Shown here: positions 24,390 to 32,841 of the stretch, one piece after another
How the letters are laid out: every line of letters starts with the position of its first letter
Position numbering within the stretch: the stretch's first letter is position 1
Assembly: GCA_003415625.1 (NCBI GenBank)
Contig: PYIU01000001.1
Location: 620,001 to 684,000, forward strand
Direction: 5' to 3'
Source of the DNA: Aquanectria penicillioides
Lineage: Eukaryota > Ascomycota > Sordariomycetes > Hypocreales > Nectriaceae
Length of the DNA stretch: 64,000 nucleotides
The notes under the pieces: model-generated
Databases searched by the model: none
What the model saw: only the letters and a program-made list of their open reading frames with translations
Told to the model about the DNA's origin: nothing
Position numbers and translations under genes: made by a program

Positions 24390-26162
24390 GATCCATGGGA
24401 AGACAAAAAGTGCATCCAAGACACAAATGGCGGCCTTTCCAAGGAATGTTATCGCTGGGTTCTTGACCATGAAGATTTTATCCGCTTCCTCACCGACCCG
24501 CAGAGCCGGTTACTCTGGATCAAAGGCGAGCCGGGCAAGGGCAAGACCATGCTTCTATGCGGTATCAGAGACGAAATTGAGGAAGAGTCTACCGCAAAGT
24601 TATCATACTCTTTCTATCGATCCACAGAGCAGCAACTAAATCAAGCTCCCGCTGTGATACGCGGGCTCATATATCTTCTTGTCAGCCAACAGCCGTCGTT
24701 TCTCTCGCATGTTCAAACCAAGTAAGATGCAGGAGACTGAGGAGTATTCGACGGCATAAATGCATGGGTTTCCCTATCGCAGGTCCTTTCAGATATGCTG
24801 CATGATCCAAACTTGGAGATGCCATCATTGTGCCTTCAAACGTTGCAGAACCCTGCTGAAGCTGTACATTGGGTGACTTTCTCAGTTCATGCCCGACAGC
24901 TTGCCTCAATTGCTTCAAACTTGATCAATTATACAGTTAGGATCTGGGATGTCGCTAACGGCAATTGCACCTCAAACATTGCATTTGACGGGGTCGTCCT
25001 GTCTTTGAGTCTAGTCGTGGAGGACTGCCTGTGTCTTCCAACACTGACACCCGATCAAAATATTGAAATCTGTGATGTTAAATCAGCGACATGCTACAAA
25101 ACCTATTGCCTTGTAATTCTATGCCTCTTAGCGCAGTAATTTTTACTGACAATCGGGTACTCGCATCTGGCTTATTGGATCATGCAGTTGATCTCTGGGG
25201 GATTGCGACTGGGCTTTTCATTCGGACACTTCGAGGCCATGCTGGACCTGCCTATTTGGTGGCTTTTTCAAACAATAGCCAACAACTGCTACCCGTTTCG
25301 ACAGACGGTATGGGATCCGACAGGAGGATATTCACTTTCCAGGCCTGCTGGCCACACCGATGTTGTGAGCAAAGTTGTCCTCTCTGAGGACGAAACCCTA
25401 CTACTATCAGCCTCTGATGACAGCACGATGAAGCTATGGGATACAACCACAGGCGTTTGAATCCGTACCCTCTATGGCTACACAGGGGAAGCGTCGGTAG
25501 CGGCATTTTCCCCCACACCACGCAAATAATATCAAGCTCGACTGGTTTCACTTTGGGGATCTAAGATGTGAGTTCTTCTGCCTGTTTGAAAATAATTCGT
25601 GCTCATCACCAGGTAATATCTGCATTGGCCTTGTCCTTCAATGGCAAACAGATTGCGGCTAGCTCATAGACGGGCACAATGATCATTCTTGATCGAGATT
25701 CCAACACGATATTTGACCAATCATGCCAAATAATTTCAATGGCATTTTCACCTAATAGCAGGCAGCTTGCCTCTAGTTCGCAAGATAAAATAGTCAAGAT
25801 TTGGGACCTAGCCACAGGTATTTGCATGCAAAGACTGCAACTTGGGAAAGTCATGCATCGTCTCGCGTTCGACCCAATGTTACCCACTCAGCTTGCCACA
25901 AACATTGGATTGCTAGATCTAAAATCCCAACCCCTCCATGATATAACTCCCTACAAAACTGTGGCGGACAAGGTCCCTCAAAATCTGTGCAGTATAGAAG
26001 TAAGCATGGCGTGGATAGAGAAGAATGGCGCGAAGATTCATTTTCTCACTTGGGAATATCGACCGTTTACAAAATCGATTTGGTGAATTGAATGAAAGCA
26101 CGGTTGTTATCGGGTGCGAGTCGGGACGTGTTTCGAGATTGGAATTATTGGGAGATGCATGA
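24390..26162 (+). pseudogene. NACHT-WD40 (STAND/NLR-type, HNWD-like) pseudogene
   Basis: Decayed relative of fungal NLR genes that control heterokaryon incompatibility and immune-like cell death. The stretch 24390-24722 reads DPWEDKKCIQDTNGGLSKE and then RLLWIKGEPGKGKTMLLCG, the NACHT P-loop. The frame stops and resumes as VFDGINAWVSLSQVLSDM (about 24745-24800). Most of the NACHT/winged-helix part is then missing. WD40 fragments follow in different frames: RIWDVANG, LWGIATGLFIRTLRGHAG, SASDDSTMKLWDTTTG and LASSSQDKIVKIWDLATG. The tail VVIGCESGRVSRLELLGDA with TGA at 26160-26162 matches the usual end of this family. Several stops, frame changes and an internal deletion make a functional product impossible. 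Confidence 0.85.
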
Positions 26163-28504: not shown

Positions 28505-29317
28505 TCAATCCACGTCCTTGAAATACTCAAAATGTGGAATCGGTTTCAGATCTTCATCAATATCCTCATCATCAGAGTCACTGTCAAAATCATCGGGATC
28601 ATACCCCCCCGCAAACATTGCCCCCTTCGTGGAATGATCCTTGGCCCTGAGCTTCCCACTGCGCCTTGAGTATATGAACTCGCGGACCGTATAGGCAAAG
28701 TCACAATCCTCAACTACCTCAAATCCAAGGGCTGACGACTCCTTTTTATCATGAGACATTTTGCCTTCAACCTTGCTTCCAATACCCGGCAGTGAGGTAT
28801 TTAAGGACGTGGCCACCGCATTGCTATCTTCGCTCTTCTCTTTCACCGTCAGCTTGCTAGCAGTGGCGACCCCGGTGATTATGTAGAGAGATTTAGTGAA
28901 TAGACACCGTCGCACAAAGTCCTTCACACTTTGATTCTGTAGCGCAAGCTCCATGTAGTGGTCGCTTGGTCGGAACCACTTGGTGCGAACTTTCAGTGCC
29001 TCGATAGTGTTGTTTGTGCTTTTGGATTGCTTCCCATCTACTCCAGCTTTGAAGTCCGGGAGAAAGGCTGACGGAGCTAGAGATAATAAAAGATGGTTAC
29101 TCTTTGACAGCTCTTCTTCCAAAGTCCGACGATCCACCTCTGAGTCGGAATATATCTTGTCACTGGGAACTGGAATCAGGCCATCGTCGAGATTAAGTGA
29201 TGACTGGGGGTCTTCATGATCCGAGAGGATGCTGCCGAGGGCCAAAAGATTGCCTGGTACCTGGGGGTATCGATAAACATGCCATATCTTGGCGCCGGCG
29301 ACTTTTCCAGTCGGCAT
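28505..29317 (-). CDS. gasdermin-like pore-forming cell-death protein (putative)
   Basis: Intronless protein of 270 residues from ATG 29317 (MPTGKVAGAKIWHVYRYPQV); an in-frame ATG at 29434 would add 39 residues. The pattern matches fungal gasdermins of the RCD-1/HET-Q1 type. There is a short N-terminal strand block, a middle helix-strand unit (FVRRCLFTKSLYIITGVATA), then a polar hairpin rich in K and S. Next comes EDCDFAYTVREFIYS, which aligns by pattern with the conserved end of the gasdermin pore domain. After KGAMF comes a very acidic tail of about 30 residues (DDFDSDSDDEDIDED), the part removed by protease in HET-Q1. The assignment is from remembered family pattern, not a search. A TPR-subtilisin protease gene is divergent 1 kb away, the expected partner type. 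Expression of the cleaved form would be expected to kill the cell. Confidence 0.7.
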   Translation of the reverse strand: MPTGKVAGAKIWHVYRYPQVPGNLLALGSILSDHEDPQSSLNLDDGLIPVPSDKIYSDSEVDRRTLEEELSKSNHLLLSLAPSAFLPDFKAGVDGKQSKSTNNTIEALKVRTKWFRPSDHYMELALQNQSVKDFVRRCLFTKSLYIITGVATASKLTVKEKSEDSNAVATSLNTSLPGIGSKVEGKMSHDKKESSALGFEVVEDCDFAYTVREFIYSRRSGKLRAKDHSTKGAMFAGGYDPDDFDSDSDDEDIDEDLKPIPHFEYFKDVD

Positions 29318-30343
29318 GATGCGTAGTGAAATGCAGCAAAAGATCTTGTGCAGGGAATGGTTGTGTTTGGTTGTGAATTTGATCTTGGACAACCCAGGAT
29401 GGTAAGAGCGCGACGTGGGCTTAAAGAACAGCACTGGTTAGGCTAACACGAGCCGAGAGAGTCATGTGAAGGTGGACTAAATGTCGCATTTGGAATCAAT
29501 TCATGGGAGCCCACGCCGTGGCAGTCTACTAACGCAAACGCAGTCATTTGAGAGTGTCTCGGGGCTCACCGGATTGCGATTGTCCACCCAACACGCCGTT
29601 ACAAGGCTGTTGGCGAGGCGCAATCCGTAACTATTTGCCGAATGGCAAGGCAACTCGGGATTTGCCGGGGCCATGTCTGGGCCGCCAGTGGTTTTCCGCT
29701 AATGTTGCTCTGAGACATTCTCTCTCTCTCTCCGCCACAATTGATGCCTGGAGGGTCGGCGAGGCACTTTGGGTTAGAACCACGGCTTTTAGACTGATCA
29801 GATGACTAACGCAGACTAACGCACTGCTCCTCCTCAGCCTTATAATTTATTTCACGCGACAATCTGACTTCACTGGTTTCAGCTCGCTTCGTAGTCGTTG
29901 ATTTCAAATCGCCAAAAGCAAGTCACTTGACTTTCTCCAGTACATTATTCTATGTATCTCCCGTTGCGAATCGACTGTCCTCTACGACCACACTCTGGCT
30001 TGATCCTCCCATGCCGTGAACCAAGCGGCGGCAAATCCTCTAAGCAAGTTAACATCCAGCACCAGAGCTTCAGTTGGTAAGCAGATCAAGACAATCACAT
30101 TTACACTAGAATATTGATTTGTTAACTCCAGACCACACAGGTTCCGGTATGGTCGTCCGAGTTCAAACGCTCGGATGGTAATGCCCAGTAACCCTTTCAA
30201 TCCCATTCGAGACGCTGCCAGGCTAGTGGGCTTTTATCTTCACATTCTGATCCCATTCAGAACCACTCTTGGCGAGGTTGGTTGGTTGAACTCTCAATTC
30301 GTCCCGTCCTCAACTTTCCCCATCTGCCTTTAACACCACTTTA
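29318..30343. promoter_or_regulatory. divergent intergenic region, gasdermin-like / TPR-subtilase
   Basis: About 1 kb lies between the two starts. It has a CT-dinucleotide run near 29719-29732 and no plausible exon. It probably contains both promoters. If the pair works together, joint control from here is expected. Confidence 0.4.
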
Positions 30344-32841
30344 TTGACAATGTCACCTCTACTGGTGTTGCTTTCCAAAGCAATAAAAGCTTACGATGGA
30401 AAAGAGTACGAAGAGGCAGCAAGTCTGTACAGTGAATGTCTGCAATTATGCAATAAAGAATATGGAGAAGACCATGGCGACACGCTTGACGTGAAAACCA
30501 ACGTTGCTACCTGTGCCCTCAAGCTCAAACAATATCAAGAGGCTGAGACACTTTTTCGTGCAATACTCGAAGCAAAGGAAAAGTCCAAAGCACATAGCGA
30601 TACATCTATTTTCTCAACGAAGTTTCGACTCGCCAAGACCCTCCTCGCCAGAAAGTCATACAACGAGGCCGTGGAGCTCTTTAGAGAAACCTTAAACAAC
30701 CAGGTAGCAACCTTGGGTCATCAACACGAGGCTACTCGTCTAACAAAATTCCACTTGGCTGTCGCGTTGTATGAGCAACAAACATACAGCGTCGCTGAGA
30801 AGTTCTTTCTACAAATCTATGAGGATGAGAAGGAGGAGTTGGGAACCAATGACCCTGACACTCTTCTCACGCTTCGGTGGATAGGAAAATGCGCCTTTCA
30901 ACGAGAGGGATTTGAGGATGCAGAGAAAATATTTAGGCGACTCTTTGAAGCACACAGCACCCATATGCCGGCAAACAATGAAAGGGCTCTTGCAAACAAA
31001 TTCTGGTTGGGCAAGACGCTGTTCGAGTTGAAGAAATACAAGGATGCTGAAATTGTGCTCACCGAAACATCACAAAGTCGAAAACACGTCCCTGGCGTCC
31101 TGGACAAGGAAGAGCTATCAAACAAGTTCTGGCTCGCGAGAACTATGTACGAGCAAGGCTACCACTCCAAGGCTCTGGTTATAATCCAGGATATGCTGAA
31201 AGAAAAGGAAAATCGGGATTGGCCCAGCAAGAAAGATGCTGATTATTCCCAGTACGAAAAGCTTCTCACATCCCTAATACAGCAACGTAAGGGAAGGAAG
31301 GCGTCGTCTCCGAATCCAACACCAAAAAAGGATGTGCGCGAAAGACGCAGGGACAGCGACCCATCACCCAGTTCATCACCCAGCGCGAGCGAGAAAGTCT
31401 CTGCTCAAAATCATGGCGATGATCTACGCAAGCAGGTTTTGCAGAAAGGGGAACTGATAAAGAAATCCCCTAAGAGAGCTGGTCGACCAAGCTCCTCAGA
31501 GTCCACTAAACGGCGTTCAATGCCCCACGAGCTGGTAACGAGCCAAAGCCGCCACAGCAACTCAGTGTCAAAAAGGCAAAAGGGTCAAGGTGATGATAGC
31601 AGTAGTTGTGATGAAGCTGGTTGGTTCTATTCCGACGCCTCTTAGCTGAATGTCTAACGAGCTTGATAGACTCCAATGGCGGGACTTTTCACAGTCATAT
31701 TTCAACCCTTCGGCAACTTTGGTATGTCAAGCAGCAGATGCAGTGCGTATGCGAGTGTCTTATCCTCACTAGGATGAAACCTGCCGAAGAAGCCACATTC
31801 AAGGAGCTACACCAAACTGCACATTGTCGCCTGTCCTTTAAGGATAGCGACAAGCCAGTGAAAGTTGCTATCCTCGACACTGGCATCGATCTTGGGCACG
31901 ATGAATTCAAGGAGCCCAGGGCCAAATCCATGTGCATTGATGGGGACGTGTCACACCTCAAGATCAAACCAACTCGCAAGAAAGGGGAGGGCCCTCAAAA
32001 GAATCGTATCATAAGGTGCAGAAACTTTTGCGATGCCACGCAGCAAGACAATGTCGATGTTGACGATGTTGACGGGCATGGGACAATGGTTGCCGGAATT
32101 GTCTTGCGACTTGCTCCAAGGTCTGAATTGCTGATTGCCAAGGTCTGCGAGGGAGACGATAAACAAAGGGCAGGGTCTACGACAAGGTCTCATGCAACGC
32201 CGCAAGCTGTAGCGGCAGCGATCAATTGGGCCGTCGAAAAAGAAGCAGACATCATCAACATGTCGTTGGGCTTCGACGCGTTCCATCAAGTGATTGAAGA
32301 TGCCCTGGAGAAAGCAGCGGCAAAGGGCGTCTTGGTTTTTGCTGCGGCATCGAACCACGGCAGACATAAAAGGACTGCATACCCAGCGAGATCGTCACTG
32401 GCAACCGCAATCTACTCGAGCAACGACGCGGGCACCGGCTTTTCCGAGTACAACCCAGCGCCTGAAGCGGGCGCACACAACTTCATGGTCACAGGCGAGA
32501 ATGTCATTTCGCCGTGGCGGAGGGCCCAAGACGGCGGCTACGGGGTGGGCAGCGGAACTTCGTTTGCGGCTCCTGTCGCGGCGGCCATGGCAGCGTTGAT
32601 CTTGGCCTTTGTCAACCAGACGCTGGTTCCTAAGGGCCAGGAGGGGATTTTGAGCGCGGACAACATCAGCTACTTGCGACAAAAAGACGGCATGGCATCT
32701 GTTTTCGAGAAAATGAGCGCTAAAGTGGGCGGTTACTTGTGGATCGACCCAATGTTGATGTGGAGGGGGTTTGCCTCAGGTGATCGGACAGCAAGCGATG
32801 AGTACGCTCGGAGATGGCTGCAAGCCGCGCTCACCCGATGA
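30344..32841 (+). CDS. TPR-subtilisin (S8) protease fusion
   Basis: Predicted 796-residue protein. Exons 30344-31589, 31646-31721 and 31773-32841 all join in phase (introns of 56 and 51 bp). The N-terminal half has six to seven tetratricopeptide repeats of the kinesin-light-chain type (EYEEAASLYSECLQL; QYQEAETLFRAIL). A Ser/Lys-rich linker with RRRDSDPSPSSSPSAS follows. The C-terminal part is a subtilase with a complete triad: Asp476 in VAILDTGID, His543 in DGHGTMVAGI and Ser704 in GSGTSFAAP. No signal peptide is seen, so it is cytosolic. A sensor-type repeat domain on a protease resembles NLR-like guard architecture. Subtilisin HET-Q2 of Podospora cleaves the gasdermin-like HET-Q1, and here a gasdermin-like gene is divergent next door. 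If the first intron is not real, the locus would be two separate genes; the phase agreement argues for one. Confidence 0.8.

What the first reader, a model, noticed from the sequence alone, without database searches (positions are those of the whole stretch)
28505..32841. Putative gasdermin plus TPR-subtilisin cell-death module
Seen: a 270-residue protein with a gasdermin-like fold pattern and acidic tail, divergent from a single gene joining about seven TPRs to a subtilase with intact Asp/His/Ser. Known: in Podospora the subtilisin-like HET-Q2 cleaves gasdermin-like HET-Q1 and triggers cell death, and RCD-1 of Neurospora is a gasdermin. Inferred: here the protease carries its own TPR sensor, so sensing, cleavage and pore formation could sit in two adjacent genes.
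Basis: partly seen in the sequence, partly recalled or inferred. Interest (0 to 1): 0.92.

Follow-up and report, generated by a model that had tools for sequence, protein, structure and literature searches.

The report
Fungal gasdermin with TPR–subtilisin activator
A fungal genome carries, side by side, a pore-forming "suicide" protein (a gasdermin) and a protein-cutting enzyme with its own sensor region that probably switches it on; the pair is real, but it belongs to a kind of two-gene cell-death module already described in fungi.

Summary
The minus-strand gene (28505–29317, 270 aa) is a fungal gasdermin: its closest solved relative is Podospora HET-Q1 (E 2e-27, residues 7–230), although no Pfam model matches. 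The plus-strand neighbour encodes seven 42-residue TPRs and an S8 subtilase with its Asp, His, Asn and Ser motifs. They form one gene only if a ~50-nt intron is spliced out over an in-frame TAG; acceptor and branch site look good, the donor weak. In this genome 8 of 11 gasdermin loci have an S8 or CHAT match within 5 kb (7 of 10 from genome-wide searches alone). The window's is the only TPR–S8 pair seen; five others use DUF7580–S8 with a third gene nearby. Verdict: new member of a known kind. Cleavage, stimulus and death are inferred. More surprising leads lie outside the window: a gasdermin continuing into a patatin domain without its serine motif, and the third gene.

The parts
28505..29317 (-). 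Fungal gasdermin (HET-Q1-like), 270 aa, one exon as read; pore-forming part about residues 7-230
   Evidence: phmmer to 9uv9 HET-Q1 pore E 2.2e-27 over residues 7-230; held-out genome profile E 2.7e-25
28505..28612 (-). C-terminal tail of the gasdermin after F235 (35 aa, 15 D/E) plus stop: candidate inhibitory peptide. KGAMF (231-235) is the candidate cleavage motif
   Evidence: composition; KGAMF / KGAQL / KGAML in window, L048 and L047, while L046, L049 and L050 lack the KGA (alignment A1); cleavage itself inferred from HET-Q1
29318..30349 (.). 1032-bp region between the two divergent start codons; probably holds both promoters
   Evidence: gene positions; promoter role inferred
30350..31619 (+). 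Exon 1 of the TPR-S8 gene: seven TPRs (residues ~8-299) then a basic, serine-rich linker (exon end 31619 or 31601)
   Evidence: Pfam TPR_12 E 8.7e-25; 42-residue period
31620..31669 (+). Predicted 50-nt intron GTTGGT...CTAAC...TGATAG that removes the in-frame TAG at 31643-31645 (alternative donor 31602)
   Evidence: enumeration of GT-AG introns that keep the frame; no transcript data
31670..32841 (+). Exon 2: S8 subtilase domain, Asp/His/Ser and oxyanion Asn motifs present; no propeptide family matched
   Evidence: Peptidase_S8 E 2.8e-28; best solved relatives subtilisin BPN' and intracellular serine proteases; motifs
31722..31772 (+). Possible second, in-frame 51-nt intron (GTATGT...CACTAG); if spliced the protein is 796 aa instead of 813
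   Evidence: canonical donor; the spacing to the Asp motif is then closer to that in L047 (my reading)

Best explanation
This is a two-gene regulated-cell-death module of the fungal gasdermin / HET-Q2-like (Q2L) kind. The TPR-S8 protein is an intracellular sensor-protease. Its TPR part recognises an unknown cue (foreign or altered self), and this brings the S8 domain into action. The protease then cuts the neighbouring gasdermin near residue 235, in KGAMF, and removes the ~35-residue acidic tail. The freed N-terminal part oligomerises in the plasma membrane and kills the cell or hyphal compartment. Shown here: gasdermin homology, TPRs, S8 with its catalytic motifs, adjacency, and recurrence of gasdermin-protease pairs in the genome. 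Inferred: splicing into one protein, activation by the TPRs, cleavage and its site, pore formation, death, and a role in defence or allorecognition.
For: Gasdermin: HET-Q1 match E 2.2e-27; held-out profile 2.7e-25. Protease: S8 and TPR in Pfam, catalytic motifs, intracellular serine proteases among the best solved relatives, no secretion signal evident by eye. Association: genome-wide protein searches gave 10 gasdermin loci, 7 with an S8 or CHAT match within 5 kb; an eleventh, L021, was found by looking only inside S8 loci. Leaving out the window and L021, 6 of 9, chance about 2e-11 under random placement. Relative orientation differs between pairs (divergent in the window and L053; convergent in L047, L054, L021, L052; same strand in L046, L048), so the link is not one shared promoter. 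Literature: Q2L proteases with TPRs beside gasdermins are a described class (passages).
Against: No Pfam gasdermin hit. The AlphaFold model failed without an alignment, so the fold rests on sequence homology. The weak splice donor leaves the TPR-S8 fusion unproven. HET-Q1 is cut at F238; carried over without gaps this would fall near residue 241 here, six residues after F235, and the solved HET-Q1 chain (232 residues) does not reach that part. Of five aligned paralogues, only L047 and L048 share the KGA motif. Three of 11 gasdermin loci have no protease match within 70 kb, and not every S8 of this type has a gasdermin: none was found in the 8 kb of L056 (DUF7580-S8) or in the short S8 loci L003, L007, L029, L038, L041.
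Confidence: 0.86

Rival explanations
1. Three genes, not two: a TPR protein that ends at the TAG, a separate stand-alone S8 protease of HET-Q2 size, and the gasdermin. The TPR protein could then be an independent or partner sensor.
For: The TPR frame has an ordinary stop and the S8 is in another frame; the intron donor is weak; HET-Q2 is a 388-aa S8 protein, with no repeats mentioned (review passage), and the S8 exon alone encodes about 390 aa.
Against: Only 92 bases between the TAG and the first in-frame ATG of the S8 part (31738; counted); a CTAAC branch site and TGATAG acceptor where needed; TPR joined to protease is a described Q2L architecture.
Confidence: 0.11
2. The gasdermin is not activated by this protease but by pairing with another allele, as RCD-1 of Neurospora, and the protease is a bystander.
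For: RCD-1 works without cleavage (review passage); RCD-1 also appears as a marginal match (E 1.4).
Against: The match to cleavage-controlled HET-Q1 is far stronger than to RCD-1 (2.2e-27 against 1.4); an acidic tail is present; gasdermin-protease adjacency recurs.
Confidence: 0.06
3. The pair is inactive or in decay in this strain, as other death-related genes look to be.
For: WD40 repeats at 24795-26086 lie in several frames and the gasdermin at L051 is fragmentary.
Against: Both window genes are open over their whole length apart from the predicted intron, with the catalytic motifs kept.
Confidence: 0.05

Closest known systems
HET-Q1 / HET-Q2 of Podospora anserina (fungal gasdermin and S8 subtilase, allorecognition)
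   Same: Gasdermin of nearly the same length (270 vs 278 aa; 278), homologous over residues 7-230, short C-terminal tail, S8 protease partner
   Different: HET-Q2 is 388 aa with no repeats mentioned; here the S8 is joined to seven TPRs by a long linker (if spliced). Allorecognition role not tested
Q2L proteases with tandem repeats clustered with gasdermins (Clavé et al. 2022, not held; seen through reviews PMC10989679, PMC10197012, PMC12881547, passages only)
   Same: S8 protease joined to TPRs beside a gasdermin gene: the described architecture
   Different: Whether published TPR-S8 proteins have the TPRs in front and the protease behind, as here, was not stated in the passages read
TPR-bearing CHAT protease with gasdermin in Podospora (review passage)
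   Same: TPR sensor and protease in one protein activating an adjacent gasdermin
   Different: Caspase-like CHAT instead of S8
RCD-1 of Neurospora crassa
   Same: Fungal gasdermin
   Different: Activated by pairing of two alleles, not by cleavage; only a marginal match here (E 1.4)

Membership tests
Fungal gasdermin (fGSDM) | Sequence homology to a characterised fungal gasdermin over the pore-forming domain | tested here: met
   9uv9 HET-Q1, E 2.2e-27, residues 7-230; held-out profile E 2.7e-25
Fungal gasdermin (fGSDM) | Pfam gasdermin profile (PF04598) match | tested here: not met
   0 families at E up to 1. None of the other gasdermin pieces given to Pfam matched it either (L047, L048, L049, L050; L052, L053; L021; L046, L054 and L051 were not given), so the model does not seem to reach this lineage; I do not count it as a defining feature
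Fungal gasdermin (fGSDM) | Gasdermin fold by structure comparison | tested here: inconclusive
   Single-sequence AlphaFold model mean pLDDT 32.9, not searched
Fungal gasdermin (fGSDM) | Short C-terminal inhibitory tail removed by a protease | tested here: inconclusive
   Acidic 35-aa tail present after KGAMF; cleavage not testable with these tools
Fungal gasdermin (fGSDM) | Pore formation and cell death | not testable with these tools
   needs experiment
HET-Q2-like (Q2L) protease | S8 or CHAT protease domain with catalytic residues | tested here: met
   PF00082 E 2.8e-28; Asp/His/Asn/Ser motifs
HET-Q2-like (Q2L) protease | Gene beside a gasdermin gene | tested here: met
   1032 bp between the two start codons
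HET-Q2-like (Q2L) protease | Repeat sensor (TPR, ANK or WD40) in the same protein (frequent, not obligatory) | tested here: inconclusive
   TPRs met, but same-protein status depends on a predicted intron
HET-Q2-like (Q2L) protease | Cuts the neighbouring gasdermin | not testable with these tools
   needs experiment
NLR (NB-ARC/NACHT) protease sensor | Nucleotide-binding domain | tested here: not met
   no NB-ARC or NACHT among the 19 families matched by the 813-aa protein

The most novel reading that the evidence does not exclude
Gasdermin control in this genome is built from exchangeable sensor front ends on S8 proteases. The window's TPR-S8 is a self-contained two-gene version. Five other loci use DUF7580-S8 together with a conserved third gene (weakly HeLo-like in one member) lying head-to-head or next in line; elsewhere that third gene stands beside a DUF7580-PNP_UDP phosphorylase (L055) or a DUF7580-S8 gene where no gasdermin was found (L056). 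The third gene would be a shared trigger or licence for the DUF7580 sensors, and the TPR-S8 pair a form that does without it.
Probability: 0.3. Interest if true: 0.55.

Novelty: new member of a known kind. Interest (0 to 1): 0.32.

Why it matters
It adds a well-preserved TPR–S8/gasdermin pair to the fungal pyroptosis-like modules, in a genome that holds at least 11 gasdermin loci (one of them fragments) with several kinds of activator. That makes the genome a convenient place to ask which sensor part answers which cue, which one review calls a major open question (PMC12881547, passage). The pair alone would not surprise a specialist.

Tried and rejected
Pfam for the gasdermin: no hit. AlphaFold of the gasdermin from a single sequence: pLDDT 33, not used, no fold search made. 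Organism: Colletotrichum lini #394-2 (53.7 Mb, 13 contigs; passages of PMC11432806) was considered and rejected: its two accessory chromosomes are 0.9 and 0.4 Mb, while here 11 contigs make up 53.71 Mb and the remaining two only 46 kb. Idea of fast-evolving near-identical repeats, as in HNWD receptors (recalled): not seen; any two TPR units share at most 35% (crude slicing with the first unit one residue out of register). Clavé et al. 2022 could not be read. Two weak matches (C12:3087586, C8:4834529) cover only the patatin end of the L049 query and were not counted as gasdermins.
Full report
What is there. The window is C1:620001–684000 of a 53.76-Mb genome in 13 contigs. On the minus strand, 28505–29317 encodes 270 aa. 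On the plus strand, 30350–32841 encodes TPRs and a subtilase, with 1032 bp between the two start codons.

The gasdermin. Pfam gives nothing at E up to 1, but of two matches among all solved structures the first is the HET-Q1 pore of Podospora (9uv9, E 2.2e-27, residues 7–230), the second RCD-1-1 at E 1.4. A profile built from six other gasdermin sequences of this genome, without the window's, finds it at E 2.7e-25 among 1123 six-frame open frames of the window and the loci then held (overlapping loci counted repeatedly). The last 35 residues hold 15 Asp/Glu and 2 Lys/Arg. Just before them stands KGAMF (231–235); of five aligned paralogues two have KGAQL and KGAML there (L048, L047) and three (L046, L049, L050) do not. 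HET-Q1 is cut at F238, losing 40 residues (review passage). I therefore place the likely cut at or near F235; this is inference, since the solved HET-Q1 chain (232 residues) stops short of its own site, and an ungapped carry-over would point about six residues further on.

The protease. Pfam gives Peptidase_S8 (residues 485–740, E 2.8e-28) and TPR_12 (E 8.7e-25, three stretches). The TPR part has a period of 42 residues and seven units. The catalytic motifs are there. The best solved relatives are subtilisin BPN' and intracellular serine proteases. The protein starts directly with TPRs; no signal peptide is evident by eye, and no propeptide family was reported. It is therefore likely to act inside the cell.

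One gene or two. The TPR frame stops at a TAG (31643–31645) and the S8 frame is shifted. Listing GT–AG introns of about 40–130 bases that restore the frame leaves 15 possibilities; the acceptor at 31669, with a CTAAC branch site 16 bases before the end, goes best with donors GTAGTT at 31602 or GTTGGT at 31620, neither strong. A further in-frame intron, 31722–31772, has a canonical donor. A fusion is likely but not shown.

Recurrence in the genome. Protein searches with the window's gasdermin and three paralogues found 10 gasdermin loci, each with E 0.01 or better in at least one search. Adding L021, found only by looking inside S8 loci, gives 11. The nearest S8 or CHAT match is within 5 kb for 8 of 11: S8 at the window, L046, L047, L048, L054, L053 and L021; CHAT at L052. 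The three without one are L049, L050 and the fragments at L051, 71–202 kb from the nearest. For an unbiased count I leave out the window and L021: 6 of 9, chance about 2e-11 if 36 protease places lay at random; real gene placement is not random, so this is a guide only. Those 36 are 25 S8 places, from 30 matches with five exon pieces of the same genes dropped by hand, plus 11 CHAT. The reverse does not hold: the DUF7580–S8 locus L056 shows no gasdermin in its 8 kb, nor do the short S8 loci L003, L007, L029, L038 and L041, so many S8 genes have other partners or none.

Strength of the gasdermin calls. L047, L049, L050 and L048 also match solved gasdermins (best E 3e-8, 2e-4, 8e-4, 0.0024), L046 only weakly (0.037). 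L021 and L052 do not and rest on the paralogue profile (8.5e-14 and 7.4e-6). L053, L054 and L051 were not compared with solved structures and rest on the paralogue searches and profile.

What is different in the window. Of the seven S8-paired gasdermins, only the window's partner was seen to carry TPRs: Pfam found none in the partner pieces scanned, and none of the TPR matches lies near the other loci. Five partners (L046, L047, L048, L053, L054) carry DUF7580. L021's partner was not scanned. A small third gene family lies next to all five DUF7580–S8–gasdermin loci and gave no match in the window. A genome search with one member found 7 matches including itself; 6 lie by a DUF7580 gene and 1 by the decayed gasdermin L051. 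The reverse is looser: the 19 DUF7580 matches fall at about 15 places, and only 7 of these have the third gene. In six loci it stands head-to-head with the DUF7580 gene (L046, L047, L048, L054, L055, L056); in L053 the gasdermin lies between. In L055 the DUF7580 protein carries a PNP_UDP phosphorylase, so the third gene goes with DUF7580 rather than with gasdermins. Of six members scanned, one has a HeLo match, below Pfam's cut-off (21.5 against 23.2 bits). No paper in the library names DUF7580.

Compared with what is known. Passages of three reviews (PMC10989679; PMC12881547; PMC10197012) state that ~80% of fungal gasdermin genes are clustered with protease genes; ~60–63% of cases are S8 and 17–19% CHAT; many of these proteases carry TPR, ANK or WD40 repeats or kinase-like domains; and in Podospora a TPR-bearing CHAT protease activates its gasdermin. 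The original work (Clavé et al. 2022) was not held. The window pair fits this class. Its mechanism is inferred by membership; nothing here shows cleavage or death.

Verdict. Interest 0.32.

Noticed in passing
L049:2755-5462 (G000:C1 about 8146.8-8149.5 kb, minus strand): A gasdermin open frame runs on without a stop into a patatin-type start (DSGGVRG) and, after a likely GTAAGT...ATGTAG intron, into patatin-like sequence (Pfam PF01734 only E 0.052, below cut-off) where the usual GxSxG (recalled) reads GTGTGG, so the catalytic serine seems missing. A gasdermin-patatin fusion is not described in the passages read of four of the nine papers that hold gasdermin, patatin and fungi.
   Followed up: partly
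L046:2-955, L047:8800-9372, L048:9310-9702, L053:7778-8557, L054:7353-8501, L055:2130-3200, L056:6751-7945: A small gene family, weakly HeLo-like in one of six members scanned, with Cys/His-rich stretches downstream by eye, found beside DUF7580 sensor genes (S8 or PNP_UDP) and mostly head-to-head with them.
   Followed up: partly
L052 (G000:C13 3443500-3453400): A CHAT protease gene and a diverged gasdermin side by side, the caspase-like version of the same module; the gasdermin has no match among solved structures.
   Followed up: partly
window:24795-26086: WD40 repeats in several overlapping frames: a broken or many-exon WD40 gene, possibly the remains of a receptor.
   Followed up: no
window:35153-36502: HET-domain gene (PF06985, E 1.4e-29) 2.3 kb beyond the protease: another incompatibility-type gene in the neighbourhood.
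   Followed up: no
window:33620-34759: Weak PPPDE/LRAT-like gene (below Pfam cut-offs) with a glycine-rich end.
   Followed up: no
L051 (G000:C8 about 4753-4754.5 kb): Gasdermin fragments with stops in one match, next to a remnant of the third gene: a decayed cluster.
   Followed up: no
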